A DNA stretch of 47,050 bases from a virus. Position numbers and translations under genes: made by a program. Location: positions 1 through 47,050 of IMG/VR virus record IMGVR_UViG_3300047493_000064, one strand, 5' to 3'. Shown here one piece after another: positions 1-47,050 of this stretch (position 1 is its first letter; the number at the start of each line of letters is the position of its first letter). The notes beneath the pieces are model-generated. The model was not told the DNA's origin. It made no database searches and worked only from the letters and a program-made list of their open reading frames with translations.

Positions 1-124
1 TACTATTATCAGTTGTACATTCTTCTATTCGGGGTATGCGTCAATACATTGAGGATAAAAACGCTCTTTACGCTGTAGAAATACTAAATAATGAAATGGA
101 AATGAAAATAGGGAATTGTATGAC
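1..124. repeat. Terminal direct repeat, copy at window start
   Basis: These 124 bases are identical to 46927-47050, the last bases of the window. A gene running off the right end (starting 46875) continues in frame at position 3 here and ends at 221, so the overlap joins the two ends of one circular sequence. The circle would be 46,926 bp. This is either an assembly overlap of a circular or permuted genome or, less likely, a short true terminal redundancy. Confidence 0.9.
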
Positions 125-221
125 CACATTAATTGAAATAAGTGCACTAATCGAATTTACGCTGGCTCATGCTACTAATCTTCCCAATAAGCTAAAAGAA
201 GAAAAGGATAATCCCCTTTAA
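1..221 (+). CDS. Small helical protein, second tandem copy (5' part lies at 46875-47050)
   Basis: Function unknown. When the ends are joined, the gene begins at ATG 46875 behind a strong AAGGAGAGTAAGG ribosome site and encodes 90 residues ending KEEKDNPL. An internal ATG at 36 would give only 61 residues and lacks a ribosome site. The neighbouring copy at 46573-46860 is nearly identical but has a different C-terminus. The N-terminus is rich in I, L and N, followed by helical, weakly amphipathic sequence (IEISALIEFTLAHATNL). It lies directly downstream of the intein N-half gene and probably shares its transcript. Confidence 0.7.
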   Translation, partial: LLSVVHSSIRGMRQYIEDKNALYAVEILNNEMEMKIGNCMTTLIEISALIEFTLAHATNLPNKLKEEKDNPL

Positions 222-278
222 AGCGTTAATAATCAGTCAGAGAGTTTTTAATCTAAGGTTGATTCATTAAAGGGGATT
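210..278. promoter_or_regulatory. Long-spaced 12-bp perfect inverted repeat after the small-ORF copy
   Basis: AATCCCCTTTAA (210-221) and TTAAAGGGGATT (267-278) are exact reverse complements with a 45-bp spacer. The left arm overlaps the end of the upstream gene, so it could fold in the transcript as a terminator or processing signal. The 12-mer ATCCCCTTTAAA also occurs at 6558-6569 near the other end of the block separating the two terminase halves. The rest of 222-480 holds no gene I can support; CAGGAGACAG (470-479) is the ribosome site for the next gene. Confidence 0.5.
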
Positions 279-480
279 TCCTGGACAGAATTTAATTATA
301 AAAACATTAACAATCTATTAGGAAACTATTTTTATTTAAATAGATTTAATCCTGTCTTATAGGGAAACTAGCAGGGTTAAATATTTTTTACAATGAGAAA
401 TTTGTGTTATTTTTCAACTATTTTAATCTGGATTATATGTTATATACGTCTCATTAAACGATAAATATCAGGAGACAGAA

Positions 481-750
481 ATGACGTTTGACCAATTAGA
501 ACAATTAAAAGAGCAGATTAGAGCTAAGTTTGTGGAGATAGATAACATGTCTCCCATGGCGGAACCGTCAGACTCATGGGAAAATGCGCGTTGGGAATTA
601 GAAAAGATAGAATGTTATATTGATAGTATGAGACGCTCGGTTGAAGATATTATTTTTGATTCACAGCGAATCTTTAAATCATTAGATAACATTGGTGAAG
701 TTGTTAGAGCTAAAATAGAGAACCCTTATTCTCAGCAGGATTTTATATGA
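481..750 (+). CDS. Hypothetical 89-aa helical protein
   Basis: Not recognised. The ATG follows a good CAGGAGAC ribosome site. The protein is charged and predicted largely helical (MTFDQLEQLKEQIRAKF, then WENARWELEKIECYIDSM), with no membrane segment or cysteine motif. Its stop overlaps the next start as ATGA (747-750), implying translational coupling. The last 38 bases (714-751) recur exactly at 1208-1245 in front of the paralogous gene at 1241, so this end took part in a local duplication. Confidence 0.7.
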   Translation: MTFDQLEQLKEQIRAKFVEIDNMSPMAEPSDSWENARWELEKIECYIDSMRRSVEDIIFDSQRIFKSLDNIGEVVRAKIENPYSQQDFI

Positions 751-1142
751 ATTCAGTAAAGGAAATATTAAAAACCTTGCGAGATTTAATAATTGAATCA
801 AAAGAATGGGAAAAAGAATGGGATGCTTTATATAGATTTTTTTTACAAACAGACGACTTATTTTTTTTACCTATTTTAATATCAAAGGCATTGCGAATTT
901 TGGAAAAGGATGGATGGAAATTAGATGATTTGTTGTTAGAATTAGCCAAGAATAACACACTCTCTAGTGAGGATAACAAAAAAGTTTTAACAGCAGCTCT
1001 AGTAACATTAACTCCTCCTTCCAAAAAGAAGAAAAAAGAGGAAGGTCGTTTACCTATTTCTTATCAGGAGATAAAAGAGTTAGGGTTAGAGAAATATTAT
1101 TATTATTTCAAGCAGCGTTTTGATGTAAGAAGTAGAAGTTAA
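747..1142 (+). CDS. Chimeric small protein (N-half like 1241 gene, C-half like 1856 gene)
   Basis: Function unknown; 131 residues. The N-terminal half (IIESKEWEKEWDALYR, then KALRILEKDG) is a paralogue of the protein at 1241-1660. The C-terminal half (TPPSKKKKKEEGRLPIS, then KELGLEKYYYYFKQRFDVR) matches the protein at 1856-2182. The DNA agrees: 1011-1061 matches 1907-1957, and 1132-1172 matches 2134-2174. Relative to the 1856 gene it has lost LIKS and a later internal stretch, the latter shifting frame and ending it early in RSRS. It is translationally coupled to the gene at 481. The lysine run could bind nucleic acid, but this is speculative. Confidence 0.6.
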   Translation: MNSVKEILKTLRDLIIESKEWEKEWDALYRFFLQTDDLFFLPILISKALRILEKDGWKLDDLLLELAKNNTLSSEDNKKVLTAALVTLTPPSKKKKKEEGRLPISYQEIKELGLEKYYYYFKQRFDVRSRS

Positions 1143-1240
1143 TCAATTTATTAAAAAGATGGTAAGAACATGTCCCCTCCCCAAAGTTATCCCATAACAG
1201 GAGCTTTAATAGAGAACCCTTATTCTCAGCAGGATTTTAT

Positions 1241-1660
1241 ATGAAGAGATTGCAAATAGATCAAATCTTTCTTATAAAGTTAAGGTCTCTTATTATTGAA
1301 TCAAAAGAATGTATTATTGAATCAAAAGAATGGGAAAAAGAATGGGATGCTTTATATAGATATACCTTACAAGAAGAGCCCTTATCTTTTATTCCTATTC
1401 TTGTATCAAAAGCTTTAAGAATTTTAGAAAAAGATGGACATAAATTAGAAGATATAATAATGAAATTAAAATTTTATCCTGATGAATCGACGGATGTCAT
1501 AAAGCATTATTTAGCTTCTATTCTTTCAAGATTAGATGTTGATCTTATAAGGAAAAATCATTATTTTCCTTTTGCTGATGAATGGACTGATTTATTCGAA
1601 CAAATACAGGACAAAAGGAATAAGACAGTGGCAGAATTTTTGAGTAGAGAAAATGGATAA
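1241..1660 (+). CDS. Hypothetical helical protein, paralogue of the 747 gene
   Basis: Not recognised; 139 residues. It shares ESKEWEKEWDALYR and KALRILEKDG with the protein encoded at 747. An internal duplication is visible near the N-terminus, where IIESKE occurs twice in succession. The C-terminal half (residues ~75-139) is unique to this copy and contains DEWTDLFEQIQDKRN. The ATG sits in the duplicated segment 1208-1245, where AGCAGGA serves as ribosome site. It overlaps the next gene by 8 bp at 1653. Confidence 0.65.
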   Translation: MKRLQIDQIFLIKLRSLIIESKECIIESKEWEKEWDALYRYTLQEEPLSFIPILVSKALRILEKDGHKLEDIIMKLKFYPDESTDVIKHYLASILSRLDVDLIRKNHYFPFADEWTDLFEQIQDKRNKTVAEFLSRENG

Positions 1661-1841
1661 AGAATTGATAAAAGATATTATGCTGGTCTTGTATAATGTT
1701 ACCATCCTGGGACTGTTTGGAATCACACTATCTGATTTAATTATTCCTTCTTTAACAGCGGGCCAGCGAAGTTCCTTAAATGGAATCTTAATAGGAACAT
1801 TGCTGGCTTACGTATACCCTTTATCTAAAAGAGAGAAATAA
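1653..1841 (+). CDS. Small two-segment membrane protein
   Basis: Unrecognised 62-residue protein with two hydrophobic stretches: roughly residues 8-30 (IMLVLYNVTILGLFGITLSD) and 43-56 (ILIGTLLAYVYPL), then a basic tail SKREK. Size and topology are compatible with a small holin or another inner-membrane phage protein, but no family motif is visible and no endolysin lies beside it. It overlaps the preceding gene by 8 bp, so it is likely coupled in the same operon. Confidence 0.55.
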   Translation: MDKELIKDIMLVLYNVTILGLFGITLSDLIIPSLTAGQRSSLNGILIGTLLAYVYPLSKREK

Positions 1842-1855
1842 AACATGGTTAAAGA

Positions 1856-2182
1856 ATGGCCAGAATAAGTTCGGATGAATGGGCTGAGTTATTAAATTTT
1901 ATCAAAACTCCTCCTTCCAAAAAGAAGAAAAAAGAGGAAGGTCGTTTACCTATTTCTTTGATTAAATCTTATCAGGAGATAAAAGAGTTAGGGTTAGAGA
2001 AATATTATCATTATTTCAAGCAGCGTTTTGATGTAAGAAAGAGTCAGGGATTATCATTTGATGATGCTGAATGGAAGGGGATGAATGATACGGTTTATTA
2101 TTTTATAGAACAGACAAAGTTTACATTAGATAGTGTAGAAGTTAATCAATTTATTAAAAAGATGGTAAGAACATGCCGATAA
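1856..2182 (+). CDS. Hypothetical protein with lysine-rich linker
   Basis: Unknown function; 108 residues. Layout: short N-terminal helix (SDEWAELLNFIK), basic linker PPSKKKKKEEGRLP, then the helical block KELGLEKYYHYFKQRFDVR and a C-terminal helix ending VRTCR. The linker and helical block recur in the chimeric protein at 747-1142, and this longer version looks like the parent. ATG 1844 just upstream is closed by a stop after seven codons, so 1856 is the usable start, although its ribosome site is weak. Confidence 0.6.
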   Translation: MARISSDEWAELLNFIKTPPSKKKKKEEGRLPISLIKSYQEIKELGLEKYYHYFKQRFDVRKSQGLSFDDAEWKGMNDTVYYFIEQTKFTLDSVEVNQFIKKMVRTCR

Positions 2183-2215
2183 AGGTTTGAAGATTGATAT
2201 AAGGAACAAAGAATA

Positions 2216-2665
2216 ATGGCTAAAAAATCTCCTCAGGACGAAAAACCTCTTTCTGAAAAGCCAATAACTCAATATTTGGAAGAAAATATCTATTCTCTGA
2301 TAGGTGATGCAAAAGCCTATTGTCGACTGATGATGGACGAATTTAAAGACATTCCTTGTAATACCTCTATCATTGAAAGAATTGACAAGGATGGAGTCAT
2401 TACAACAATAGATGTGCTGGATCAAGTTATCCATTTAAGAGATATCATTATGAAAATTGACTTAAGCCTAACTGGCTACATAAGAGAACGAATGAAGAGT
2501 AAACACACGCCTATGAGTTATGAGCCCTCTCTGTTGCTAGTTCCAACAGCGTATGTTAGTGTGCCTTCAGAAACGGCATTTTATAGTCCGCCGATTTCAT
2601 CTTCTTCTATGAAAGATTCTAAAAATGCCAAACTGGACACACGCATTAAAAGAAATCCAAATTGA
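2216..2665 (+). CDS. Hypothetical 149-aa protein
   Basis: Not recognised. The ATG follows AAGGAACAAAG. The N-terminal ~100 residues are predicted helical and include QVIHLRDIIMKIDLSLTGYI; the last ~50 are a low-complexity tail rich in P, S and K (PPISSSSMKDSKN). No membrane segment. It is the last gene of the small-gene cluster, and a 27-bp palindrome capable of a stable hairpin begins 8 bp after the stop. Confidence 0.65.
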   Translation: MAKKSPQDEKPLSEKPITQYLEENIYSLIGDAKAYCRLMMDEFKDIPCNTSIIERIDKDGVITTIDVLDQVIHLRDIIMKIDLSLTGYIRERMKSKHTPMSYEPSLLLVPTAYVSVPSETAFYSPPISSSSMKDSKNAKLDTRIKRNPN

Positions 2666-2673
2666 TGAAATTC

Positions 2674-2700
2674 GAACTGTCAAGGATTCCTTGACAGTTC
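2674..2700. terminator. 27-bp perfect palindrome after the 2216 gene
   Basis: GAACTGTCAAGGA (2674-2686) and TCCTTGACAGTTC (2688-2700) are exact reverse complements around a single T. In RNA this is a very stable hairpin just after the stop at 2665, but no U-run follows, so it may be a factor-dependent terminator or an operator. It lies 24 bp before a second palindrome and ~145 bp upstream of the HigA-like gene. Confidence 0.5.
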
Positions 2701-2723
2701 AGTTGTTCGGGATTTCCGAATAT

Positions 2724-2754
2724 CTCAACTATTTCCAAAATGGAAACAGTTGAG
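2724..2754. promoter_or_regulatory. 31-bp inverted repeat, candidate operator of the HigA-like gene
   Basis: CTCAACT-A-TTTCCA / TGGAAA-C-AGTTGAG forms an almost perfect inverted repeat with one mismatched pair and an AAA centre. Its position 90 bp upstream of the HigA-like DNA-binding gene fits an autoregulatory operator, since HigA proteins typically repress their own promoter. Promoter hexamers are not clear enough to call. Confidence 0.45.
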
Positions 2755-2844
2755 GTATGTGCAAAGACAGCCTGAGATTGTTCCAAAGAGATAGGTCTGT
2801 TATTACAAAGCATATAGGTAATATTTTTGAAGAAAGGGAATTAT

Positions 2845-3093
2845 ATGAAAATGCACAACCCTCCCCACCCTGGCGAAATCCTAAGAGAACTTTATCTTAA
2901 GCCTTTAGGACTTACCATAACAGAAGTCGCGAAAGGATTAGGAGTTACACGGAAAACATTAACAGTTCTTGTGAATGGACATGCAGGCGTTAGTCCAGAG
3001 ATGGCTATAAGACTTTCCATAGCTTTTGATACAACCCCAGAAAGTTGGCTTAATTCTCAGCAGCATTATACCTTTTGCTCTCTCCATAAATAA
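2845..3093 (+). CDS. higA-like: HigA-family XRE-type antitoxin/regulator without partner toxin
   Basis: An 82-residue helix-turn-helix protein of the HigA/VapI antitoxin family. The family signature [18 protein letters not shown] is at the N-terminus, followed by [21 protein letters not shown] (recognition helix region), then [23 protein letters not shown] 2845 fits best, with AAAGGGA 5 bp upstream; an upstream in-frame TTG at 2827 has no such site. The C-terminus is short and ends [10 protein letters not shown] where family members usually continue with a QxxYDL-type helix, so the tail may be frame-altered. No HigB-like ribonuclease gene is adjacent on either side. It probably acts as a stand-alone repressor or as antitoxin to a host toxin. 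Confidence 0.85.
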
Positions 3094-3146
3094 GTCTAAG
3101 TCATTTATTTTGCTGTGTTTTTTTTTGTGTGCGTTAGTGAATTTCA

Positions 3147-3476
3147 TTAGCTATCCAACTCCAGTTGACATTCCTGTTCTATTGATTCACTCACTCTTCT
3201 CATCAAAGAAGCGCTGATCTGGGTAAAGAAAGTAATATAAGTCATCACTCTTTCACAATCCTCAGTCTCGCTTTCAAAATATTTAAGAAGATCTTCCTTT
3301 TCTGAGGGGCTTACAAAGGAATTCTCAATTATTTCCCTAATCTCCTTTTTTATCTTAGGAATGGAATCAAAATGATCAGTAATGATCTTTTCAAATAAGA
3401 TGGAAAGAGCTCTAAACAACAACAACTTTACTCGTACCCCTTCCAAGGGTAGTTTTTTTGGTTCTACTTGATTCAT
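3147..3476 (-). CDS. Hypothetical 109-aa helical protein, opposite strand
   Basis: Not recognised. Read from the minus strand, ATG 3476 follows AGGACTGAT, a good ribosome site, which supports a real gene. The product is predicted helical and charged (MNQVEPKKLPLEGVRVKLLL, later KIKKEIREIIENSF and ESETEDCERVMTYITFF). It is the only minus-strand gene between 1 and 37 kb. It diverges from the Rep gene, with the putative origin between them, so it could be a copy-control or replication accessory gene; this rests on position only. Confidence 0.6.
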   Translation of the reverse strand: MNQVEPKKLPLEGVRVKLLLFRALSILFEKIITDHFDSIPKIKKEIREIIENSFVSPSEKEDLLKYFESETEDCERVMTYITFFTQISASLMRRVSESIEQECQLELDS

Positions 3477-3559
3477 ATCAGTCCTATTTGTTCATCATAA
3501 AAAAATTATCTAGCGAATCATACAATATGTAGCTTTGTGTCTGCTAGTCTGCTATAAAA

Positions 3560-3595
3560 AAAAATAGCTCTTCCCGCTAGAGAAGAACTATTTTT
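3560..3595. terminator. Strong hairpin with A-run and T-run, origin region
   Basis: AAAAATAGCTCTTC (3560-3573) pairs with GAAGAACTATTTTT (3582-3595) with one mismatch and an 8-base loop. An A-run precedes it and a T-run ends it, so it would act as an intrinsic terminator in both directions. Its location between divergent genes, just upstream of iteron-like repeats, also fits a structured origin element. Confidence 0.6.
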
Positions 3596-3667
3596 ACTCA
3601 ATTTAAACTTAGAAAATAATCAACAACAATTATCTTAGAAAGACCATTTAAAGGACCCTCATAAAAC

Positions 3668-3771
3668 TTACAAAGTATAACAAAGGAAATATACAAAGTA
3701 TAACAAAGGAGCTTTACAAAGGAGACTTACAAAGTATTACAAAGCAAAGTATTACAAAGGAGATTTACATA
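3668..3771 (+). repeat. Iteron-like direct repeats, candidate replication origin
   Basis: The motif TACAAAGTATAACAAAGGA and close variants repeat in one orientation: starts near 3669 and 3692 (23 bp apart), a short form at 3715 (TACAAAGGAG), then TACAAAGTATTACAAAG at 3728 and an overlapping copy reading AAAGTATTACAAAGGAG from 3746. The array lies 70 bp upstream of a winged-helix replication-initiator-like gene in a strongly AT-rich gap (3477-3841) containing no gene. This arrangement is typical of iteron-controlled origins; function is inferred. Confidence 0.55.
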
Positions 3772-3841
3772 TGCCCTAATTCTACATAGATGTCAACAAA
3801 AAAACATTTTTTTTCACAATTAAAAATATGAAAGACATTTT

Positions 3842-5062
3842 ATGGCACTTAATTCTTATATTAAATACCAGCTTTCGCTGGCCAAAATAATTGGAGATAA
3901 GGAAGCTCTCTTTATCGACAGCCTTAAATATTGGAGAGAACATCCTAACGTTGGCAAACTCTACCAAGGGAAAAAGTGGATTTATAACACAGCAGAAGAA
4001 TGGGCCAATCAACTTAATATCTGTAGCCGTCATGTTAGAAGAATAGTGGCTAAACTCGTTAAGCTAGGAATCCTTCTTGTTGAGAAGCTAAACTTCAACA
4101 AGTTCAAACGGACCAACTATTACACAATTGATGATAATAAGTTACAAGAAGTCCTTACTCCTCAAGAAGGAAAAAAATGTCCTAATGCATTAGGCTCGCA
4201 GAGCCTAATCTATAATACAGAGAATACTAATACATCTTATAAGATTATAAGAGGAAATAAAGATTTAAGTAAAATACAAGATACATTCATTAATGATAAT
4301 AAAGATTACTCTAATACTAACGATGTTAGTACAGATAGAGAAGATGTGAGTGGTAAATACTTGAGCAAGGTTGAAAAGAGGATAGATCATTTCATGGATG
4401 AAAAAGATAAGCTAGAAGCTTATAAGATGTTAGAAATCATAACAGATAAGCTGGATCCTCCCTTAAAGATCAATTCTGAGTTGACGATGAATATTCTCTC
4501 CAGGAGATTGCAGGCACATTTCGGCACAGGCCGAGAGGCTCTCACTGCCTTTAAGGATTATTGTACCTGTTATGCCCACAATGAGCTCTTGATGGGAAAG
4601 AAAGCTTTAAAGGATGGAACCTACTTTAAAACCAATATCGGCACTATCCTCTCAAACAAGTTCATCAACGATTACCTGGAAAAAAGAGGATTCTTCCGTT
4701 TTACTAACCTTCAGTACTCACCTGTTGAGAGAAGGGCTCCTGGCGCCGAAGATCAAGAGAGAAGAGAACAGAACTCCTGGTTTTACGACGACAAACCTGC
4801 ACGAGAAAAAGTCATGGCCCCCCGCGAATATGTCTCCCCCCCAGCTTCCCCTGAAATGGAAGCCATGTTTGAGAGATTAGGCAAGACATTAGGAATGGCC
4901 GTTAAACCCGCTGTAATGGCACCTACAGCCCCATCACCCTCTTACCCTAGGCCAACCTACCTTCCTAAGGCAGAAGGGCCGTCAGGGGGCTTAAAATCGC
5001 TGTTACGGGCACAAAAGGATTATCGACCACCAAACAGGAGGGAAGAAGGAGAAATATCCTAA
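3842..5062 (+). CDS. Putative replication initiator (winged-helix Rep-like)
   Basis: Likely binds the adjacent origin and starts replication. Residues ~15-100 form a winged-helix-type DNA-binding domain: KEALFIDSLKYWREH, then WIYNTAEEWANQLN, CSRHVRRIVAKLVKLGILLV and a wing KFKRTNYYTID. This pattern is common in plasmid and phage replication or regulatory proteins. Residues ~110-180 are a low-complexity N/T/D linker. A second helical domain follows (residues ~180-285, with NILSRRLQAHFG and YFKTNIGTILSNKFINDYLEKRGFF), then a proline-rich tail. The region upstream carries direct repeats and a hairpin. There is no strong ribosome site. Codon use becomes less AT-rich after ~4,680. It lies inside the interval separating the two terminase halves. 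Alternative: a transcription regulator. Confidence 0.6.
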   Translation: MALNSYIKYQLSLAKIIGDKEALFIDSLKYWREHPNVGKLYQGKKWIYNTAEEWANQLNICSRHVRRIVAKLVKLGILLVEKLNFNKFKRTNYYTIDDNKLQEVLTPQEGKKCPNALGSQSLIYNTENTNTSYKIIRGNKDLSKIQDTFINDNKDYSNTNDVSTDREDVSGKYLSKVEKRIDHFMDEKDKLEAYKMLEIITDKLDPPLKINSELTMNILSRRLQAHFGTGREALTAFKDYCTCYAHNELLMGKKALKDGTYFKTNIGTILSNKFINDYLEKRGFFRFTNLQYSPVERRAPGAEDQERREQNSWFYDDKPAREKVMAPREYVSPPASPEMEAMFERLGKTLGMAVKPAVMAPTAPSPSYPRPTYLPKAEGPSGGLKSLLRAQKDYRPPNRREEGEIS

Positions 5063-5180
5063 GAGCTTTTTTCTCTTCTAAGGAGAAGTTTAATTGAATT
5101 TTCTTTTAAACCCTCTCTTTATAGAGAGAGATAAATTAGCTATGATTCGAGGATTAACAAGTAAAAAAGGACAATTTGAA

Positions 5181-5807
5181 ATGAAACGATTGATAACAAG
5201 CTTAATAAGTGTAGCTTTATTAACAACAGCAGTGTATGCCAGTGACGCTGATTCACTTGCTGAGAAAAGAAATGAAAGCGGAACACTTTTAACAGATGTT
5301 GTTAGATATACTCTTCCTGCACCAGTGGTAGAGCAGTTAGATGAGCACTGGGGAAGAGTAAAGACTGCTTTGGTAGAGTTAGGAGAAACTCATTGGAAAG
5401 GAAATATAGAGGACCCTCTCCGGGCTTTGTACGTTAGCCGTGGTCTGGCTCATTCTAGTGCATTAGGGCAATCATTGGTCGCACGCCGAGAAGAGCATGA
5501 AGCTTCTATACGAGGGCAAGCTGATTCACTAATGATAAAGATCTTTTTAAGATATCCAGATATTATGGATCTTACGCCTGCTGATTCTATAGCGGGTCCT
5601 TATTGGGTATGGTCGGATCCTCATAGATTACAATTAGCTGAAGAGCAATGGACAACCAAAATTGCGCCCACTATCCAAAGAGCTTACAATTTGATAGGAC
5701 AAGGAACTGGTCCAGGTGTTCAAGCAGCTTTACAGACAGCACGAAAGAAATTTGATGATGAAGTAAAAATAGAAATGGGAATATTACGAAGGAGGAGCGC
5801 TTCTTAA
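5181..5807 (+). CDS. Secreted or periplasmic protein with signal peptide
   Basis: 208 residues from ATG 5181. This start is preferred because it has AAAGGACAATTTG upstream and gives a textbook signal peptide: basic MKR, a hydrophobic core LITSLISVALLTTAVYA, then SDAD after the likely cleavage site. An upstream in-frame TTG at 5094 would bury the signal. The mature part is helical and charged, with no cysteine and no recognisable catalytic motif. Export suggests a periplasmic job such as lysis support, superinfection exclusion or host modification. It overlaps the next gene by one base (TAATG). Confidence 0.75.
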   Translation: MKRLITSLISVALLTTAVYASDADSLAEKRNESGTLLTDVVRYTLPAPVVEQLDEHWGRVKTALVELGETHWKGNIEDPLRALYVSRGLAHSSALGQSLVARREEHEASIRGQADSLMIKIFLRYPDIMDLTPADSIAGPYWVWSDPHRLQLAEEQWTTKIAPTIQRAYNLIGQGTGPGVQAALQTARKKFDDEVKIEMGILRRRSAS

Positions 5808-6148
5808 TGAGATTAAATAAAGATTTCAAGAAAACCAAATATGGGCTTTTCAGGAAAGAGAAGGCTTCTTTACCTGAAGAAAAGGGGGGTGGCAATTTGC
5901 CCCCATCCTTAATGCCAACCTGTGACGATTTGTCACGGGTTGCTGTTGCTTCAGAAGATTCCCCTGTTCCTGTTATGCTTCCTATTTGGCCTGGGAAGGG
6001 GATACAGTTCCTTAAACAGCGTCGACCAAAACCATTTATGTATCTAACTGATGAAGACTTGGAAGAATATAAGAAAGAGCAAGAAGAGTGGGAAGAATGG
6101 CAGAAAGAGTGGAATAATACGATACGAGACAACAGCAGATTAAGATGA
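5807..6148 (+). CDS. Hypothetical 113-aa protein with acidic/aromatic coiled tail
   Basis: Not recognised. The start overlaps the stop of the exported-protein gene (TAATG), so the two are probably co-translated. The N-terminal part is basic with a glycine/proline linker (EEKGGGNLPPS). The last ~40 residues form a highly charged helix with repeated W and E (LEEYKKEQEEWEEWQKEW). No membrane segment. It ends immediately before the six-copy 22-bp tandem repeat. Confidence 0.6.
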   Translation: MRLNKDFKKTKYGLFRKEKASLPEEKGGGNLPPSLMPTCDDLSRVAVASEDSPVPVMLPIWPGKGIQFLKQRRPKPFMYLTDEDLEEYKKEQEEWEEWQKEWNNTIRDNSRLR

Positions 6149-6181
6149 AGAAATGTTTAAAGAACCTGCACGTCAACATCT

Positions 6182-6313
6182 TACCGCCTACTCAAATGCG
6201 CACTACCGCCTACTCAAATGCGCACTACCGCCTACTCAAATGCGCACTACCGCCTACTCAAATGCGCACTACCGCCTACTCAAATGCGCACTACCGCCTA
6301 CTCAAATGCGCAA
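6182..6313 (+). repeat. Six tandem copies of a 22-bp unit
   Basis: Six head-to-tail copies of a 22-bp unit beginning TACCGCCTACTC and ending ATGCGCAC, identical except for the last base of copy six. The GC-rich units stand out from the AT-rich surroundings. Because 22 is not a multiple of three, any reading frame cycles through all frames every 66 bp, so the short open frames here (6145-6399, 6153-6389) are probably not genes. Located ~330 bp upstream of the terminase C-half. Possible roles: protein-binding array, packaging or partition site. Confidence 0.9.
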
Positions 6314-6401
6314 ACAACATTGTGAAACATATGATTTACTGCGGTTCACAGGAGGTATTCGTTTTTATAAAAATATTAAAAACTATTAAGAGTTTTTAAT
6401 A

Positions 6402-6445
6402 GGGGGGGGGAACTAACGCAAAAGGGGGGGGGAACTAACGCAAAC
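6402..6445 (+). repeat. Two 22-bp units beginning with nine G residues
   Basis: Nine Gs followed by AACTAACGC and an A-run occur twice, again with a 22-bp period (6402 and 6424). Two G9 tracts on one strand in an AT-rich genome are conspicuous and could form intermolecular or slipped G-rich structure. G-run lengths may also be affected by sequencing error. Confidence 0.75.
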
Positions 6446-6506
6446 CAAATCCATGGAACCCTATATTTTCAGCCATATATAGAAACATTCGTTTTGGCGT
6501 AAAGAA

Positions 6507-6569
6507 TTTAAAGACTATATAAAGTCTTTAAAGGGGGGACGGCTCTTTTTAGTCGCCATCCCCTTTAAA
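6507..6569 (+). terminator. Two overlapping alternative hairpins
   Basis: Hairpin 1: TTTAAAGACT (6507-6516) with AGTCTTTAAA (6523-6532). Hairpin 2: TTTAAAGGGG (6527-6536) with CCCCTTTAAA (6560-6569). They share 6527-6532 and so are mutually exclusive, a layout seen in attenuators and antiterminators. The gap 6149-6644 otherwise holds the two 22-bp repeat arrays and one more hairpin, with no gene I can support. Confidence 0.5.
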
Positions 6570-6578
6570 AAACAAAAG

Positions 6579-6618
6579 GTAATAACTCGCTCTTCCTAAT
6601 TCACTATTGAGTTATTAC
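6579..6618 (+). terminator. 10-bp stem hairpin just upstream of the terminase C-half gene
   Basis: GTAATAACTC (6579-6588) and GAGTTATTAC (6609-6618) are perfect reverse complements with a 20-base loop, followed by TTTT. It could terminate transcripts coming through the 22-bp repeat zone or act in the leader of the gene starting at 6645. The stem is AT-rich and only moderately stable. Confidence 0.4.
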
Positions 6619-6644
6619 TTTTCTGTGAAGATTGAGTTAAGCTT

Positions 6645-6788: not shown

Positions 6789-7889
6789 TGTGACGATGCG
6801 AACAACGTTGTTGATGTAGAATCAGAAGTCATTCGTGTTGGGGTGAATGAATGGTGGGACTTTGTTATGTCCACTCGCGTTAGCAACTTCAAGACGGCTC
6901 GATGGATTGTCGCCCAACAAAGAACCCACACATTAGACCTGTCTGGCCATGTGCTTGCCAAGAACAATGATGACTGGATTCATTTGTGTTTACCGATGGA
7001 ATTTGAGAGTAATCGGCGGTGTCAAACAGTCCTTCTCAACAAAGAAACTTGGCAAGACCCGCGTCAACATGAAGGAGAGCTGTTATGGCCTCAAGGGATT
7101 GGGCCAAAAGAGCTTCAGAACATCAAATCAGACTTCAATTATGACTCCTATCGTATCTCTGGTCAGTTACAGCAGAGCCCTTCCCCTGAAGGAGGAGGCA
7201 TCATTCAAAAGAGTTGGTTCAAGTGGTGGAAGCAACCTGATTACCCTGAGTTTAAATATATCCTCCAGAGTTGGGATACAGCCTTAACCAGTAACGTTAA
7301 TAGCTGTTACAGTGCTTGTACAACATGGGGAGTGTTTGAAGAGAATGGTATCAAGAATATTATGCTCTTAAGCCTCTTTAGTGAAAAGTTAGAATATCCT
7401 GAACTTCGGAAAATGGCTGTCAGACTCTATAATAATTATGAGGATACGTTAATTGATGAACCTATCTACGGTATCAATAGAGCTCATCATATTCTTATTG
7501 AACAGAAAGTTAGCGGCTATTCTCTCTTGCAAGATTTAATGGCAACTAATATTCCTGTTTTGAAATTTAATCCTAATAAATATGGAGATGATACGGGACG
7601 AAAAGGAAAAGGAAAGATGGGACGTTGCCGTATTGTCACTCATTTGATGGAAAATGGCTTGGTATGGTTGCCAACAATAACCCCTGCCTGTCAGTTCTTG
7701 ACCGAAGATTCACAGCTGTTTCTGAAAGCAGCCACTCTTTTCCCCAATGATGAAAGCAACGATATCATCGATAGCATGAGTCAAGCCTTTATTCGCCTCA
7801 TTAGCTCTGGGTGGATTGCTAACAAAGAAGACCCTCGTGACTTTCCTGAAGAAGATAATTGGAAAAAACAAAAAAGGCGCTATTATTAA
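6645..7889 (+). CDS. terL (C-half): Split intein C-half + large terminase C-terminal part (rest of ATPase, nuclease)
   Basis: Residues 1-48 are an intein C-half: block F is CDVYNLEVKDNNNYFAEDIL and block G ends VHN, followed by Cys49 as the +1 residue. Residues 49-414 are terminase: CDD completes the Walker B motif begun in the gene at 45713; YRISGQLQQSP follows; the RNase H-like nuclease shows LQSWDTAL (D211), IEQKVSGYSLLQDL (E286) and NDIIDSM (D373/D376). GTG 6645 gives a 48-residue half; ATG 6675 would give 38, closer to usual sizes, and neither has a good ribosome site. Neither gene alone encodes a working terminase. Trans-splicing with the product of 45713-46558 would give ~549 residues, a normal TerL length. 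A frame stop at 6633 shows the gene is not continuous with anything upstream. Confidence 0.93.
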   Translation: MKTKFKFNQYMKSKVVKSIKRIKKKCDVYNLEVKDNNNYFAEDILVHNCDDANNVVDVESEVIRVGVNEWWDFVMSTRVSNFKTARWIVAQQRTHTLDLSGHVLAKNNDDWIHLCLPMEFESNRRCQTVLLNKETWQDPRQHEGELLWPQGIGPKELQNIKSDFNYDSYRISGQLQQSPSPEGGGIIQKSWFKWWKQPDYPEFKYILQSWDTALTSNVNSCYSACTTWGVFEENGIKNIMLLSLFSEKLEYPELRKMAVRLYNNYEDTLIDEPIYGINRAHHILIEQKVSGYSLLQDLMATNIPVLKFNPNKYGDDTGRKGKGKMGRCRIVTHLMENGLVWLPTITPACQFLTEDSQLFLKAATLFPNDESNDIIDSMSQAFIRLISSGWIANKEDPRDFPEEDNWKKQKRRYY

Positions 7890-11834: not shown

Positions 11835-11899
11835 ATTTGTAATGATTTACAAAAAGTGTAAATTATTATCATATTAATTTTATTTTGTGGAATTTGTTT

Positions 11900-12477: not shown

Positions 12478-12502
12478 AGATTAATAAACAGGATAGGGTG
12501 GT

Positions 12503-13573: not shown

Positions 13574-13583
13574 GGATAAGATT

Positions 13584-15510: not shown

Positions 15511-15522
15511 GGAGAGCAAGCT

Positions 15523-16425
15523 ATGGCATTAATAAATAGGTCGGCCTATCCTTCGCTGTTACGGCCAGGTTTGGCAGATGTTTTTGGAGATTGGAATACA
15601 TATCCCGCTCTTTGGAAAGATGTTTACAAAGTTTTACGTTCAGAAAAAGCTGTTGAATATAGCTTGGAAATGCAGGGATTAGGACTTGCTGAATTGCAAG
15701 CAGAAGGTGCTCCTGCTTCTCAAAGTTACATGCAACAAGGTTATACCACAAGTTTTGTGCATCAATACTATTCAACTAGTTTTGTTATTACACGAGCAGC
15801 TATTGTCGATAACTTATATCAGAGTCAATTCCCACAGCAAGCTGTTCAGTTCAGGAATAGCTTGGAAACATTGAAGAACATTAACGCAATGTATATCTTC
15901 AACAATGCCTTTAATCCTAATTCAACAGTTAGCGATGGACAGCCACTTTGCTCAACGGCTCACCCAATTTCTACAGGGGTATTGGCGAATACCTTTACCA
16001 ATGGTGTTGGGTTTACTGAATCAGCCGTCGAAGATGCCATTACCATTATTAGGTCATGGTATAACCTAGCTGGTTTGCAGATCAATTATCGATCCATTAA
16101 AACGCTTGTTCCTCAGAAACAAGCTTTTAATGCTGCTCGTATCTTTAAGTCTCAATATCAGACTGGAACAGGTAATAACGATATCAATGCGATTGTTCAT
16201 GATCAGTATATGCCAGGTGGTTACATTGTTAATCAGTTCATTACCAATGGAAACTCTTGGTTTATTTTAACTGACTGTGATGGCTTCAGATATTACTTAC
16301 GAGAAAATCTAGATATCGATTTTATCACCGATACTTTAACCAACAACGTAACCGTTCGAGCTTTAGAGCGTTATAGCTTTAACTGTCAGAATTGGCGTGC
16401 GGTATTTGGCTCTCAAGGTTCTTAA
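15523..16425 (+). CDS. Major capsid protein (Mu gpT-like, HK97 fold expected)
   Basis: 300 residues after AAGGAGAGCAAGCT. The segment DGQPLCSTAHP (residues ~139-149) matches the D-G-x-P/A-L-x-S-T-A-H-P signature of the Mu-type major head subunit family. Other family features: EYSLEMQGLGLAELQAEGA in the N-terminal arm region, a 'GG...NQFIT..NSWFILTDCDGFRYYLR' stretch, and a late MTVRALERYSF-like segment. It self-assembles into the capsid shell, probably with the GroES-like protein (12115) and the scaffold candidate. Length is normal for the family. Confidence 0.85.
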   Translation: MALINRSAYPSLLRPGLADVFGDWNTYPALWKDVYKVLRSEKAVEYSLEMQGLGLAELQAEGAPASQSYMQQGYTTSFVHQYYSTSFVITRAAIVDNLYQSQFPQQAVQFRNSLETLKNINAMYIFNNAFNPNSTVSDGQPLCSTAHPISTGVLANTFTNGVGFTESAVEDAITIIRSWYNLAGLQINYRSIKTLVPQKQAFNAARIFKSQYQTGTGNNDINAIVHDQYMPGGYIVNQFITNGNSWFILTDCDGFRYYLRENLDIDFITDTLTNNVTVRALERYSFNCQNWRAVFGSQGS

Positions 16426-16441
16426 GAAAAGGAAATAAGAC

Positions 16442-17710: not shown

Positions 17711-18468
17711 TGAGCCATCCCAAGGTTATATTTTGGCCTAATGTGGAAAATAACGTAGCCACTATTGCTCCTTTACAGGTTGTTGGGGATGATTTGACCG
17801 TTCAGATCAACTCTAATCAACCTAATATGCCTAATGTTCCAGTGAATAATAGTGGTGTGTATATCTATCAAGACATGCTTCGTACGGTCTCTATAACTTC
17901 ACCGAATGATTTAAGCGCTATTTCTTTTTTCATTATGGGTCTAAGTTCTCCGCTAGATGAGAATGGCAATCCCGTTCTTTCAACAGTAGAGCTTGATACG
18001 GAAACGATCTTAGTAGGTCCGAATAATGGCACAGTTCTGACCACGCGGGTTTATCAACAGATTTATTCGATCACCACGGATATCGCAACGGGAACAGATC
18101 AAGTAAGCGTTGGATTTGGTTCAGGTGGGATTACAGCTTATACCTTTTTAAACTTAAATAGTTCGGCTCCTCAGGCGGTTCAATTGCAAGGACAAGTAGT
18201 TAATGGAAACGATAACTTTAACTATCAATTCTACGCCAGTATGACAAAGCCAGAAATTATTAATACGAACTATGGGACGGTTACTCCTTTTCCCCAGCCA
18301 ATTCCTGCTTTTCCTGTGGGAACGCTAAACACGAATGTGAATATTCAAGTACCGCTTGTAGGTCCTCAAGCGATTATTTGGGCTCAAATTAGTGATGCTA
18401 CTAACCCAGCATCAGACTCAGTAACTTCATTTTATTTCACCATTATAGAACAAGGAATTACAAGATGA
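17710..18468 (+). CDS. Structural protein, beta-rich
   Basis: 252 residues, unrecognised. Start at the TAATG overlap with the preceding gene; it ends in an ATGA overlap with the next. Beta-rich, low in charge (LQVVGDDLTVQINSNQPNMP, TFLNLNSSAPQAVQLQGQVV), similar in style to its upstream neighbour. The chain of one- to four-base overlaps suggests the three proteins are made in fixed ratio. Confidence 0.6.
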   Translation: MSHPKVIFWPNVENNVATIAPLQVVGDDLTVQINSNQPNMPNVPVNNSGVYIYQDMLRTVSITSPNDLSAISFFIMGLSSPLDENGNPVLSTVELDTETILVGPNNGTVLTTRVYQQIYSITTDIATGTDQVSVGFGSGGITAYTFLNLNSSAPQAVQLQGQVVNGNDNFNYQFYASMTKPEIINTNYGTVTPFPQPIPAFPVGTLNTNVNIQVPLVGPQAIIWAQISDATNPASDSVTSFYFTIIEQGITR

Positions 18469-42679: not shown

Positions 42680-42967
42680 ATGAAAATTATTCCTGAAAAG
42701 AAAGAAAAAGTTAGGTTAACTCTTAAAATTGAGGTAAGAGAAGAAAATATAATAGTTCTTTGCGATGGCGGAGGTACAGCACTGGACTGTTTAAATGCAT
42801 GGTCAGCTTTAACAAAATCAATACTCTCTCAGGGAGATGATGAAGGATTTAGCGCAGAAGAGAATCTCGACTGTAGAAGATTACTGGCTAGAATGATGGG
42901 TGAAAAACTCGCGGAGATTATTGAATTACTTCCTTCTTTAAAGGCTGCCTCAAAGAAGCCACATTAA
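42680..42967 (+). CDS. Hypothetical 95-aa protein, source of a 119-bp duplication
   Basis: Start ATG 42680 (AAAGGCATCTA upstream) is preferred over 42629, which lies inside the previous gene. Beta-like N-terminus (VRLTLKIEVREENIIVLCDG), then helices LNAWSALTKSILSQGDDEG and CRRLLARMMGEKLAEIIELL. Bases 42799-42917 recur exactly at 44064-44182 inside a shorter gene, which carries only the helical half. Function unknown. Confidence 0.62.
   Translation: MKIIPEKKEKVRLTLKIEVREENIIVLCDGGGTALDCLNAWSALTKSILSQGDDEGFSAEENLDCRRLLARMMGEKLAEIIELLPSLKAASKKPH
42799..42917 (+). repeat. 119-bp direct repeat, first copy
   Basis: Identical to 44064-44182, 1,265 bp downstream and in the same coding frame in both genes. 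Complete identity indicates recent duplication or conversion. Confidence 0.9.
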
Positions 42968-43307: not shown

Positions 43308-43718
43308 ATGGATGAAGATAAAGTAACAGCTAACAAGCATTTGTTCGAAAAGGTGGATGAATTAGAGCTATCAGGGCGTTCAGCTAACTGCTTGAAAAAT
43401 GAAAATTTATTCTATATTGGAGATTTAGTCCAAAAGAGTGAAAACGATCTGTTGAAAACACCTAACTTTGGACGTAAATCTTTGAATGAGATTAAAGAAG
43501 TGTTATCGCAAATGGGGTTGGGCCTTGGAATGACTATAGTGGGTTGGGAGGACAAGAAGCAAAAAGAAGTAGAATGCAGAAGAAGACTTATACAGCTTTC
43601 TGAATTTATTCATAACCAAATAAAAAGGCGTACAAATGTTGAGGAAATTATAGATGTCGTTGCCGCTGTTTTGAAAAACCTTAAAAGTTATATTTCCGAA
43701 ACAGATAGCTCCTCTTGA
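43308..43718 (+). CDS. Stand-alone RNA polymerase alpha C-terminal-domain-like protein
   Basis: 136 residues. Residues ~12-80 are a near-full match, without gaps, to the C-terminal domain of bacterial Rpo[20 protein letters not shown], then [10 protein letters not shown] and [32 protein letters not shown]. The DNA-contact residues map exactly on E. coli numbering minus 241: R24=R265, N27=N268, C28=C269, G55=G296, K57=K298, S58=S299. The sigma-facing acids are also kept (D17, E18, E20 for 258, 259, 261). G23 replaces a usual Val. The N-terminal assembly domain is absent; residues 81-136 are a different helical tail. '[14 protein letters not shown]' with 'LGM' and 'GW' resembles alphaproteobacterial RpoA. 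It could bind promoter UP elements, occupy activators, or compete with host alpha. Confidence 0.93.
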
Positions 43719-44022: not shown

Positions 44023-44193
44023 ATGAATGAAAAAGACAACATTGATATTATAATGGAAGAATTATGGTCAGCTTTAACAAAATCAATACTCTCTCAGGGA
44101 GATGATGAAGGATTTAGCGCAGAAGAGAATCTCGACTGTAGAAGATTACTGGCTAGAATGATGGGTGAAAAACTCGCGGAGAGTACTGAATGA
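44023..44193 (+). CDS. Short 56-aa protein built on the 119-bp repeat
   Basis: Begins right after the previous stop (TAAATG) and reads MNEKDNIDIIMEEL, then the duplicated helical block SALTKSILSQGDDEGF to MGEKLAE, ending STE. It equals the C-terminal helical part of the 42680 protein with a new N-terminus. Its stop overlaps the start of a small membrane gene (ATGA at 44190). Whether it is functional or a remnant is open. Confidence 0.5.
   Translation: MNEKDNIDIIMEELWSALTKSILSQGDDEGFSAEENLDCRRLLARMMGEKLAESTE
44064..44182 (+). repeat. 119-bp direct repeat, second copy
   Basis: Exact copy of 42799-42917 in the same reading frame; see that entry for the parent gene. Confidence 0.9.
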
Positions 44194-44339
44194 CAGACCT
44201 TCTTTATTTGATTCTCATTTTTTCTGTTTTAATTATTATCACTTTATTGGTTATGTATGGGGTTTCTACTTCTGACGCTTTATTATCATTTGTAAAAGAT
44301 TCAGATATTTGTTATGAACGTTTTATGTGTGTTCGTTAG
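44190..44339 (+). CDS. Very small membrane protein (49 aa)
   Basis: MTDLLYLILIFSVLIIITLL is a clear membrane segment at the N-terminus, followed by VMYGVSTSDA and a short charged tail ending ERFMCVR. The ATG overlaps the previous stop (ATGA), a coupling signature that supports translation. Size fits a small holin, antiholin or Rz-like helper, but no motif decides. Its 3' end carries the TGTTCGTTAG half-site. Confidence 0.55.
   Translation: MTDLLYLILIFSVLIIITLLVMYGVSTSDALLSFVKDSDICYERFMCVR
44329..44338 (+). promoter_or_regulatory. Isolated TGTTCGTTAG half-site
   Basis: Matches nine of ten bases of the half-site TGTTCGTTAA in the operator at 40067-40121 and lies 16 bp before ATG 44354 of the AT-hook gene. 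May link control of the packaging genes to the same regulator; could also be chance. Confidence 0.3.
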
Positions 44340-44353
44340 AATTAAGGATATTT

Positions 44354-44896
44354 ATGACAAATAATAATAAGATAAAAGAAGTATTGAATGCGTTAGAAAG
44401 CAAAAAACCCAGAGGACGCCCTAAAGGCATTCCCCGTTCTCCTCTTGCAGGCAAGCCACCAAAGAACCTATCAAAAAAGATTAAGAGTATTTTTAACAAA
44501 AAAGGAACGATTAATAAATCAACAGCTTTGAAAAGGGAATTAATAGCACTTAGAGAAGAAGATGTTATTAATGTTAACAAATATACCGCTATTATGGAAA
44601 AGCTATGGGAAGAATCAGTTTATAAAGGCTCTTCAACGGCTGCTCGTATATGGTTAGAGGTTTATACCAGTCATATTTCTTGTGACATAAAATTAATGGT
44701 AAAAAGTATGGAAGATATAGAGGAAGCGGCCCAAATAGTTATCGACAAGATGTGTGCTGGGCATCTTTCCATTAGTCAAGGTAAAGAGTTAATGTATACA
44801 CTTCATGTAAGAAAGAACTTTAGAGAAGCGGCACTCACAAGAGCGGCTGAGCAAATTCTAGAGGATGAAGCTAATAAAACAATGAAAAGGAGATAG
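44354..44896 (+). CDS. AT-hook DNA-binding protein, candidate small terminase subunit
   Basis: 180 residues from ATG 44354 (AAGGATATTT upstream; an in-frame start at 44327 lacks one). N-terminal AT-hook-like basic region KKPRGRPKGIPRSPLAGKPP, then a basic helix (KNLSKKIKSIFNKKGTINKS) and a long helical C-terminal domain (YTAIMEKLWEESVYKGSSTA; SISQGKELMYTLHVRKNFRE). DNA-binding start, helical oligomer-type rest, size and place three genes before the TerL N-half fit a small terminase that recognises the packaging site. No family signature proves it; a transcription regulator is the alternative. Confidence 0.55.
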   Translation: MTNNNKIKEVLNALESKKPRGRPKGIPRSPLAGKPPKNLSKKIKSIFNKKGTINKSTALKRELIALREEDVINVNKYTAIMEKLWEESVYKGSSTAARIWLEVYTSHISCDIKLMVKSMEDIEEAAQIVIDKMCAGHLSISQGKELMYTLHVRKNFREAALTRAAEQILEDEANKTMKRR

Positions 44897-45712: not shown

Positions 45713-46558
45713 ATGAACTTCTCTAACGCTCGAAAAATCGATCAAGCTTTGAAGGTTATCGACAGGCGGTCTGATATTGACTTATTAACTGACCAGCAGT
45801 TAGCTATTAAAGAAAAATGTGAAGGTTCATTTTATGAATTTGTACGTCATGCTTGGAAAACGTTGGAGAACCGTGAATTTATCCCTGGGTGGCATGTCAG
45901 AGCGATGTGTGATCATTTAGAAGCGGCTTATGATGGAGATATTAAGAAGCTTTTGATTAACTTACCGCCTCGTACAGGTAAATCGAATGTTATGAGTGTC
46001 TTTTTCCCTGCTTGGTGTTGGGTTAAAGATGCAGGCTTGCGCTTTCTCTATACATCCTATGCCCAAACTCTTTCTGTCAGAGATAGTGTAGGGTGTCGTC
46101 GTCTTATCTTATCAGAATGGTATCAATCGTTATGGGGCAATAAATTTCGTCTCATGAGTGATGTAAATAACAAGTTACGTTTTGATAACAATTGCTCTGG
46201 CTATCGGATTGCCAGTTCAGTGGGGGGAACCAATACGGGGTTAGGAGGGGACTTTGTGGTTTGTTTCCCTTATTCAACGAAAGTTATGACAGCCCAAGGT
46301 TCTATCCCCATTGGAATGATTGTTGAAGACGCTATGGATATAGAAGTAGCTTCTTACAATCATAAGAAGCAGAAGATAGAATTTAAACCAATTTTAAAGC
46401 GTATGAATAGTCAGGCACATGAACTTATTGAGATTGAGTTTGAGGATGGGGAAAAGCTCCAATGTACCCCTGACCATCCTATTTTTGTGAAAGGAAAAGG
46501 CTATGTAAAAGCGGCAGAATTAGAAAAAGATAATAAATGTTTTTCAATGGTGAATTAA
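45713..46558 (+). CDS. terL (N-half): Large terminase N-terminal part (ATPase) + split intein N-half
   Basis: 281 residues. Residues 1-183 are the start of a terminase ATPase: adenine/arm region FYEFVRHAWKT and FIPGWHVRAMCDHLEAAY, Walker A LPPRTGKS (84-91), LRFLYTSYAQTLSVRDS, then TNTGLGGDFVV, where Walker B begins. At residue 184 the sequence turns into an intein N-half: block A starts CFPYSTKVMTAQG, block B contains QCTPDHPIFVKGKG with the TxxH motif (T252, H255). It ends after 98 intein residues at ...KDNKCFSMVN, the usual length of a natural N-half. The matching C-half begins the gene at 6645. The ribosome site is weak and translation may depend on the cold-shock gene 3 bp upstream. Confidence 0.93.
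   Translation: MNFSNARKIDQALKVIDRRSDIDLLTDQQLAIKEKCEGSFYEFVRHAWKTLENREFIPGWHVRAMCDHLEAAYDGDIKKLLINLPPRTGKSNVMSVFFPAWCWVKDAGLRFLYTSYAQTLSVRDSVGCRRLILSEWYQSLWGNKFRLMSDVNNKLRFDNNCSGYRIASSVGGTNTGLGGDFVVCFPYSTKVMTAQGSIPIGMIVEDAMDIEVASYNHKKQKIEFKPILKRMNSQAHELIEIEFEDGEKLQCTPDHPIFVKGKGYVKAAELEKDNKCFSMVN
46262..46555 (+). other. Intein N-half coding segment
   Basis: 98 codons from Cys1 (TGT 46262) to the stop. Splicing residues present: Cys1, block B Thr and His. Breakpoint after block B corresponds to where the homing endonuclease sits in full inteins and where natural split inteins are cut. The last ~10 codons (KDNKCFSMVN) are duplicated as the tail of the next gene. Confidence 0.92.
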
Positions 46559-46830
46559 AAGGAGAGTAAGGAATGATTATAAATGAGCTACGAATAACAA
46601 AATTAAATATTAATAATATATTAATACTATTATCAGTTGTACCTTCTTCTATGCGGGGTATGCGTCAATACATTGAGGATAAAAACGCTCTTGACGCTGT
46701 AGAAATACTAAGTAATGAAATGGAAATGAAAATAGGGAATTGTATGACCACATTAATTGAAATAAGTGCACTAATCGAATTTACGCTGGCTCATGCTACT
46801 AATCTTCCCAATAAGCTAAAAGAAGAAAAA
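46529..46830 (+). repeat. 302-bp tandem duplication beginning inside the intein N-half
   Basis: 46529-46830 and the sequence starting at 46831 (continuing across the circle junction to about 212) are tandem copies with a 302-bp period. The unit covers the last intein codons, the ribosome site and the following small gene. The junction joins GAAAAAGATAAT of the intein end with GAAAAGGATAAT of the small gene's end, a microhomology. Copies differ by a few bases (for example 'ctatgcgggg' against 'ctattcgggg'). Confidence 0.9.
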
Positions 46831-46860
46831 GATAATAAATGTTTTTCAATGGTGAATTAA
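46573..46860 (+). CDS. Small helical protein, first tandem copy, with borrowed intein tail
   Basis: 95 residues after AAAAGGAGAGTAAGG. Nearly identical to the second copy (46875 through the junction to 221) for ~86 residues, then ends KEEKDNKCFSMVN instead of KEEKDNPL. The KDNKCFSMVN tail is the C-terminus of the intein N-half, acquired in frame through the 302-bp duplication. N-terminus rich in I/L/N (LNINNILILLSVV), rest helical with two Cys/Met-rich spots. Located 14 bp after the terminase N-half; function unknown. Confidence 0.7.
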   Translation: MIINELRITKLNINNILILLSVVPSSMRGMRQYIEDKNALDAVEILSNEMEMKIGNCMTTLIEISALIEFTLAHATNLPNKLKEEKDNKCFSMVN

Positions 46861-46874
46861 AAGGAGAGTAAGGA

Positions 46875-47050
46875 ATGATTATAAATGAGCTACGAATAAC
46901 AAAATTAAATATTAATAATATATTAATACTATTATCAGTTGTACATTCTTCTATTCGGGGTATGCGTCAATACATTGAGGATAAAAACGCTCTTTACGCT
47001 GTAGAAATACTAAATAATGAAATGGAAATGAAAATAGGGAATTGTATGAC
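46875..47050 (+). CDS. Start of the second tandem copy (continues at 1-221)
   Basis: Partial only because the window ends. ATG 46875 has the same AAGGAGAGTAAGG site as copy one. Bases 46927-47050 repeat 1-124, so the complete 90-residue gene is read as 46875-46926 then 1-221. Confidence 0.75.
   Translation, partial: MIINELRITKLNINNILILLSVVHSSIRGMRQYIEDKNALYAVEILNNEMEMKIGNCM
46927..47050. repeat. Terminal direct repeat, copy at window end
   Basis: Identical to 1-124 with no mismatch seen; the gene crossing it stays in frame when the ends are joined, supporting a circular or permuted molecule. Confidence 0.9.

What the first reader, a model, noticed from the sequence alone, without database searches (positions are those of the whole stretch)
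45713..46558. Large terminase is a fractured gene rebuilt by a split intein cut inside Walker B
Seen: TerL residues 1-183 (Walker A LPPRTGKS) run into intein blocks A and B with Cys1 and TxxH; the partner at 6645-7889 begins with intein blocks F and G (VHN) plus +1 Cys, then CDD and the nuclease motifs. Joined exteins read ...GLGGDFVV-CDDANN..., a normal Walker B. Known: inteins favour catalytic motifs, and fractured genes with natural split inteins have been reported from phage-like metagenomic sequence. Inferred: packaging ATPase and nuclease activity appears only after two separately encoded proteins meet and splice, giving a built-in checkpoint on packaging. All catalytic splice residues are kept, so it is probably active and may be a new, usable split intein.
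Basis: partly seen in the sequence, partly recalled or inferred. Interest (0 to 1): 0.95.

Follow-up and report, generated by a model that had tools for sequence, protein, structure and literature searches.

The report
Split-intein phage terminase holding cargo genes
This phage makes its DNA-packaging motor as two separate proteins that most likely splice themselves together; such broken motor genes were known, but here a 7-kilobase block with replication-type genes, not the usual small homing endonuclease gene, sits between the halves.

Summary
The ORF at 45713-46558 is TerL residues 1-183 plus 98 residues of intein (IN). The ORF at 6645-7889 is 38-48 residues of intein (IC) plus the rest of TerL. 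The joint is inside Walker B; the closest relative (L098, 78% identical) has an intact, intein-free TerL there. An exact 124-bp end repeat closes the record, placing the halves 7.45 kb apart in the order N then C. IMG/VR holds a family at this one site: empty, contiguous mini-intein, contiguous large intein, and split. Fourteen distinct split relatives have 0.8-1.4 kb between exteins, filled by one ORF; nearly all examined are HNH or GIY-YIG endonucleases. One pair, 83-87% identical, shows contiguous versus split by a GIY-YIG gene. The window is the outlier: no endonuclease found, but a ~7 kb block with an O/DnaD-like initiator gene, six perfect 22-bp repeats and a HigA-type gene, absent from the closest relative. 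Trans-splicing is very likely but unproven. Split TerL inteins (AceL-TerL, GOS-TerL) and fractured phage genes are known, so this is a new variant. The packaging checkpoint is speculation.

The parts
45713..46261 (+). TerL N-extein, residues 1-183, with Walker A LPPRTGKS (45962-45985) and the first strand of Walker B (GGDFVV)
   Evidence: PHROG_4758 E=1.8e-31 and PHROG_38 E=1e-29; 57-64% identical to TerL of L002 and L003
46262..46558 (+). Split intein N-fragment (IN), 98 residues and stop: Cys1, block A, block B with TPDH
   Evidence: Pfam Intein_splicing, PDB split inteins; 49% identical to the IN of L002
6645..6788 (+). Split intein C-fragment (IC): 48 residues from GTG 6645, or 38 from ATG 6675; blocks F and G ending VHN
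   Evidence: Pfam Intein_splicing profile 121-155; L002 C-half starts at the Met equivalent to 6675
6789..7889 (+). TerL C-extein from Cys+1: CDD of Walker B, then the RNase H-like nuclease domain
   Evidence: PHROG_38 E=4.6e-36, Terminase_6C; the presumed catalytic acidic residues are invariant or nearly so in A5
46559..47050 (+). First part of the block between the halves, up to the contig end: 95-aa ORF and its partial second copy in an imperfect tandem duplication (46522-46748 / 46824-47050)
   Evidence: Self-comparison, ORFs across the joined ends
1..6644 (+). Second part of the block between the halves (about 7.0 kb in all with the first part)
   Evidence: First 124 bases equal the last 124; genes absent from L098, which is collinear on both sides, but for one weak partial match
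2827..3093 (+). HigA-family antitoxin / HTH gene in the block; no HigB seen
   Evidence: TIGR02607 E=6.3e-28, over cut-off; HTH_3; neighbouring ORFs listed
3842..5062 (+). Replication initiator / helicase-loader-like gene (O/DnaD type) in the block
   Evidence: PHROG_6493 E=1.1e-21; absent from nine related records
6182..6312 (+). Six perfect 22-bp tandem repeats (iteron-like)
   Evidence: TRF
6527..6626 (+). Two stable hairpins between the block and the C-half, the second followed by TTTT: terminator-like
   Evidence: RNA fold z = -3.95 and -4.40; not proof of termination

Best explanation
The phage's only recognised large-terminase gene is fractured. Two proteins, TerL(1-183)-IN and IC-TerL(184-549), are translated separately. 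IN and IC associate into a HINT fold, and this class-1 split intein ligates the exteins inside the Walker B motif, giving a 549-residue packaging ATPase-nuclease. It arose when an intein at this recurrent Walker B site was split by a free-standing homing endonuclease gene lodged in the intein's loop. In this lineage the endonuclease gene is gone and about 7 kb of other genes, one of them replication-type, lies between the halves, with the gene order around them kept. Shown: anatomy, site, family, contiguous/split pair, absence of the block in the closest relative. Inferred: that splicing happens, that both halves are expressed together, and the history of the block.
For: Complementary profile matches of both halves; joined intein and exteins match solved inteins and intact TerLs without a gap; all scored intein alleles of the family keep Cys1, His-Asn and Cys+1; 14 further distinct split TerLs at the same site with one ORF between the halves, nearly all examined being HNH or GIY-YIG endonucleases; contiguous/split pair L061/L062; HINT fold of the contiguous homologue L037, TM 0.87 to NrdJ-1; window and L098 end branches equal and pN far below pS in both exteins, so no relaxed constraint; record closed by an exact 124-bp overlap.
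Against: No splicing or expression data. The end overlap lies in a tandem duplication, so closure and copy number are less sure than 124 bp suggests. No Shine-Dalgarno-like sequence is obvious before either C-half start. Where the block came from is unknown.
Confidence: 0.88

Rival explanations
1. Assembly artefact: in the real genome the halves are about 1 kb apart with an endonuclease gene, or joined, and the 7-kb block was put between them by mis-joining at repeats.
For: The ends lie in a tandem duplication; the other public contig breaks at the 22-bp repeats at 6204; other split relatives have gaps of 1.4 kb or less.
Against: Both halves read into non-endonuclease sequence inside the contig: 492 bp after the N-half and 6.6 kb before the C-half; L001 confirms 441 bp upstream of the C-half with no endonuclease. 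The split itself does not depend on closure. L030/L210 is a second candidate for a wide gap.
Confidence: 0.08
2. Broken gene: the fractured terL is decaying and packaging depends on another terminase (helper phage or host prophage).
For: The record may be incomplete; splicing is untested.
Against: Both frames open, all splicing and ATPase/nuclease motifs kept, pN far below pS, equal branch lengths with intact L098; the same split form recurs in at least 14 other lineages.
Confidence: 0.03
3. The halves work as two subunits without splicing, as reported for a phage ribonucleotide reductase gene split by an endonuclease gene.
For: A reductase gene split by a homing endonuclease gene that works as two peptides is cited in PMC10448857.
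Against: Both intein fragments are conserved with their nucleophiles across the family; unspliced, the intein would interrupt the Walker B strand.
Confidence: 0.02
4. Built-in checkpoint: splitting is kept because it delays or conditions packaging until both halves are made.
For: Terminator-like hairpins separate the block from the C-half; regulation by TerL inteins has been proposed for contiguous ones (PMC7156551; PMC5050341).
Against: Close relatives have contiguous or no intein; the split form is explained by endonuclease insertion; no promoter signal above chance.
Confidence: 0.12

Closest known systems
AceL-TerL and GOS-TerL natural split inteins (terminase large subunit, metagenomic; PMC11766414)
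   Same: Naturally split intein in a large terminase; class-1 chemistry; Cys+1.
   Different: Those are split atypically (25+104 and 37+115 residues); this one is split at the canonical endonuclease site (98 + 38-48). Whether the TerL insertion site is the same was not tested.
Fractured genes (Dassa et al. 2009; PolB of phage MIJ3, PMC6892783)
   Same: An essential phage-type gene in two ORFs carrying split-intein halves; in the relatives a free-standing endonuclease gene lies between.
   Different: Here no endonuclease gene remains and about 7 kb with several genes lies between the halves.
TerL1-e and other mycobacteriophage TerL inteins (PMC5050341); two TerL inteins of cyanophage Mic1 (PMC7156551)
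   Same: Inteins in the TerL ATPase domain; TerL1-e is in Walker B.
   Different: Contiguous, not split. The paper groups TerL1-c and -e with class-3 DnaB-b inteins; this one is class 1.
NrdJ-1 split intein
   Same: Best solved match by sequence (E=2.5e-14) and by fold of the contiguous homologue (TM 0.87); canonical split.
   Different: Different host protein.
Cyanobacterial DnaE split inteins (from memory)
   Same: Halves encoded far apart and rejoined by trans-splicing.
   Different: Chromosomal polymerase gene, not a phage gene with the original gene order kept around a block.

Membership tests
Class-1 split intein | Cys/Ser at 1, TxxH in block B, His-Asn at the end, Cys/Ser/Thr at +1 | tested here: met
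Class-1 split intein | IN and IC on separate ORFs with their own stop and start | tested here: met
   7.0 kb between the ORFs
Class-1 split intein | HINT fold | tested here: inconclusive
   Met for the contiguous homologue L037. The window's own pair could not be folded as a complex; its N-half model hits split inteins weakly
Class-1 split intein | Trans-splicing activity | not testable with these tools
   Needs co-expression
Fractured gene (Dassa et al. type) | One gene in two ORFs rejoined through a split intein | tested here: met
   architecture only
Fractured gene (Dassa et al. type) | Free-standing homing endonuclease gene between the halves | tested here: not met
   Not found in the window; present in the relatives
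Phage large terminase | Walker A, Walker B, RNase H-like nuclease motifs, neighbours TerS and portal | tested here: met
   portal follows the C-half; a TerS-like ORF precedes the N-half, itself only a weak match
AceL-TerL / GOS-TerL group | Atypical split after about 25-37 residues | tested here: not met
   IN is 98 residues; values for the others from PMC11766414
AceL-TerL / GOS-TerL group | Same insertion site in TerL | not tested

The most novel reading that the evidence does not exclude
A split intein has turned an essential packaging gene into a landing place for other phage genes: once trans-splicing makes physical continuity of terL unnecessary, a whole module (initiator, iteron-like repeats, regulator) can lodge between the halves in separate transcription units, so that the halves are made at different times and packaging depends on both.
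Probability: 0.2. Interest if true: 0.8.

Novelty: new variant of a known kind. Interest (0 to 1): 0.6.

Why it matters
It gives a series of states (empty site, contiguous intein, endonuclease insertion splitting it, endonuclease shortened, other genes between the halves) at one position of one essential gene, with relatives in each state. That makes the question of how and why inteins split, and whether splitting is reversible or only ratchets on, directly testable. It also adds about fifteen candidate natural split inteins with the canonical split, useful for protein ligation if active.

Tried and rejected
(1) Decay suspected from the unusual F-block (Asn for Asp and His): rejected, family-wide. 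(2) A second TerL or intein in the record: PF03237 does not match at all (it misses the fractured one too), PF14890 finds only the two halves. (3) A hidden endonuclease in the block: Pfam HNH and GIY-YIG over the record, motif search in all frames, L002 HNH protein by tblastn: nothing. (4) Co-conversion tract at the site: window-L002 DNA identity is not raised next to it (63% and 56%). (5) Homologues of the block: none for the initiator gene in viral contigs, none of its ORFs in the fetched relatives at E 1e-4; only the initiator's N-terminal part resembles phage O/DnaD and plasmid proteins. (6) A bacterial-genome relative to name the host: one scan, none. (7) A frame error in my census script was corrected. 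(8) The L037 model is of modest overall confidence (mean pLDDT 65); only its intein part (about 80) is used. (9) Promoter scan: no more sites than shuffles.

Full report
OBSERVATION. The N-half is 281 aa: 183 residues of TerL with Walker A, then CFPYST... with block B CTPDH, then a stop. The C-half is 414 aa: blocks F and G ending VHN, then CDDANN and the nuclease part. The Pfam intein profile is matched by the two fragments at positions 12-88 and 121-155, and PHROG_38 (TerL) at 253-408 and 408-725, so the pieces are complementary. Two independent profiles breaking at the same place is not chance. The joined 146-residue intein matches NrdJ-1 (E=2.5e-14) and other solved inteins.

CIRCULARITY. 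The window is the whole virus record of 47,050 bases. Its last 124 bases equal its first 124. The ends lie in an imperfect tandem duplication (46522-46748 against 46824-47050, 98%) whose sequence continues at the start of the record. Joined, the N-half precedes the C-half on the same strand with 7,453 bp between exteins. Another public contig (L001) is identical over 6204-17886 and breaks in the 22-bp repeat array.

EMPTY SITE. L098 is the closest relative found (78% identical over the joined exteins) and has an uninterrupted TerL: NTGLGGDFIV CDDANNVV. Its order is TerS-like, TerL, portal; the window's is TerS-like (44327-44896), cold-shock gene, TerL-N, block, TerL-C, portal. The genes of the block are absent from L098 apart from one weak partial match of 5094-5807, and the initiator family is absent from nine related records, some of them fragments. 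So the block sits exactly in the intein site of an otherwise collinear region.

FAMILY. Scans of IMG/VR with the two halves and with alignments of them found many TerLs with an intein at this same position. Among loci with both exteins and both intein ends, 22 distinct ones are contiguous (399-1482 nt between exteins) and 15 are split: 14 with 796-1420 bp, and the window with 7,453 bp. In the split relatives examined the gap holds one ORF: HNH with Cys-rich zinc-ribbon-like repeats (L002, L031, L032, L035, L065; L033 by likeness only), HNH on the opposite strand (L028), or GIY-YIG / homing endonuclease (L045, L051, L060, L061). L053's short ORF had no family match. L203 and L212 were not examined for content. 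L027 keeps only a shortened HNH ORF. L030/L210 is one 50,043-bp contig with N- and C-halves near opposite ends, in N-to-C order if closed, at least 3.8 kb apart, with no endonuclease motif seen; no end overlap was found, so its closure is unproven. The flank limit of 10 kb means wider splits could be missed.

CONTIGUOUS AND SPLIT TWINS. L061 and L062 are 83-87% identical in DNA around TerL. L062 has a contiguous 139-aa intein. L061 has the same intein interrupted by a GIY-YIG ORF: IN ends in a stop, and IC starts at an ATG at the end of the endonuclease ORF. This shows the step from contiguous to split directly, or its reverse.

TREE. On the extein tree the split label needs 10 changes, at least 9 forced by well-supported branches. 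Window+L098 (split+empty) and L002+L099 (split+empty) are each well-supported pairs. The intein tree is poorly resolved; the rows nearest to the window are L002 and L027. The state therefore changes often, by gain, loss or transfer. The window and L098 have equal end branches (0.17), and both exteins show pN far below pS (pS is near saturation), so the fractured copy shows no relaxed constraint.

SPLICING RESIDUES AND FOLD. Cys1, terminal His-Asn and Cys+1 are kept in all scored intein alleles, while the +1 residue in empty alleles is mostly not Cys. The F-block Asp is Asn in 29 of 31. The contiguous homologue L037, folded with nine sequences, has its intein part at pLDDT about 80 and matches NrdJ-1 (TM 0.87, rmsd 1.7) and many solved inteins. 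The window's own N-half model hits Npu DnaE and NrdJ-1 split inteins, and T4 gp17 more weakly.

THE BLOCK. About 7.0 kb lies between the N-half stop and the C-half start: a duplicated 95-aa ORF, partly duplicated small ORFs (747-2182), a HigA-family gene without a visible HigB, an O/DnaD-like gene, ORFs without relatives, six perfect 22-bp repeats, then two strong hairpins before the C-half. An initiator-like gene plus iteron-like repeats suggests a replication module; this is inference.

MECHANISM. Most likely: separate translation, IN-IC association, class-1 trans-splicing, functional TerL. Origin: splitting of an intein at Walker B by a free-standing endonuclease gene, then loss of that gene and arrival of other genes. 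A packaging checkpoint is possible but has no evidence here; a similar idea is already published for contiguous TerL inteins (PMC7156551, PMC5050341).

NOVELTY. Natural split inteins in TerL (AceL-TerL, GOS-TerL, PMC11766414), fractured phage genes with an endonuclease between the halves (MIJ3, PMC6892783; Dassa et al. 2009, known from citations, text not held) and a Walker B intein in TerL (PMC5050341) are known. In the papers I could search I found no report of this canonical-split TerL family, nor of a phage fractured gene with a multi-gene block in place of the endonuclease; most subscription papers were not searchable. I call it a new variant of a known kind.

Noticed in passing
window 43308-43718 (+): 136-aa protein whose N-terminal part is an RNA polymerase alpha-subunit C-terminal domain (PF03118 E=7.4e-25; NF003513 E=6.3e-39). 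A homologue is in L098 on the other strand. A phage-borne alpha-CTD might redirect host transcription.
   Followed up: partly
window 2827-3093 (+): HigA-type antitoxin gene without a recognisable HigB toxin next to it, inside the block.
   Followed up: partly
window 747-2182: Small ORFs that share duplicated stretches (81-100% identical); no relatives found.
   Followed up: no
window 6401-6444: Perfect double copy of a 22-bp unit with a run of nine G, just after the six 22-bp repeats; same period, other sequence.
   Followed up: no
window 42799-42940 and 44064-44206: 143-bp direct repeat, 96% identical, on either side of the alpha-CTD gene; L001's contig length would end it near here.
   Followed up: no
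L030/L210 (contig IMGVR_UViG_3300049175_000049): Second candidate for a wide split: N-half followed by at least 2.9 kb of unknown genes without endonuclease, C-half near the other end of the contig.
   Followed up: partly
L061 and L062: Near-twin loci with split and contiguous forms of one TerL intein: a good pair for testing what splitting costs or gains.
   Followed up: yes
L009 4203-5612: Contiguous intein in what looks like the nuclease domain of another TerL (HDDY|CFVAG ... VHN|CDALALA), with an IC close to the window's.
   Followed up: no
window 4754-4851 (-): ARAGORN tRNA-His call antisense inside the initiator-like gene; probably false.
   Followed up: no
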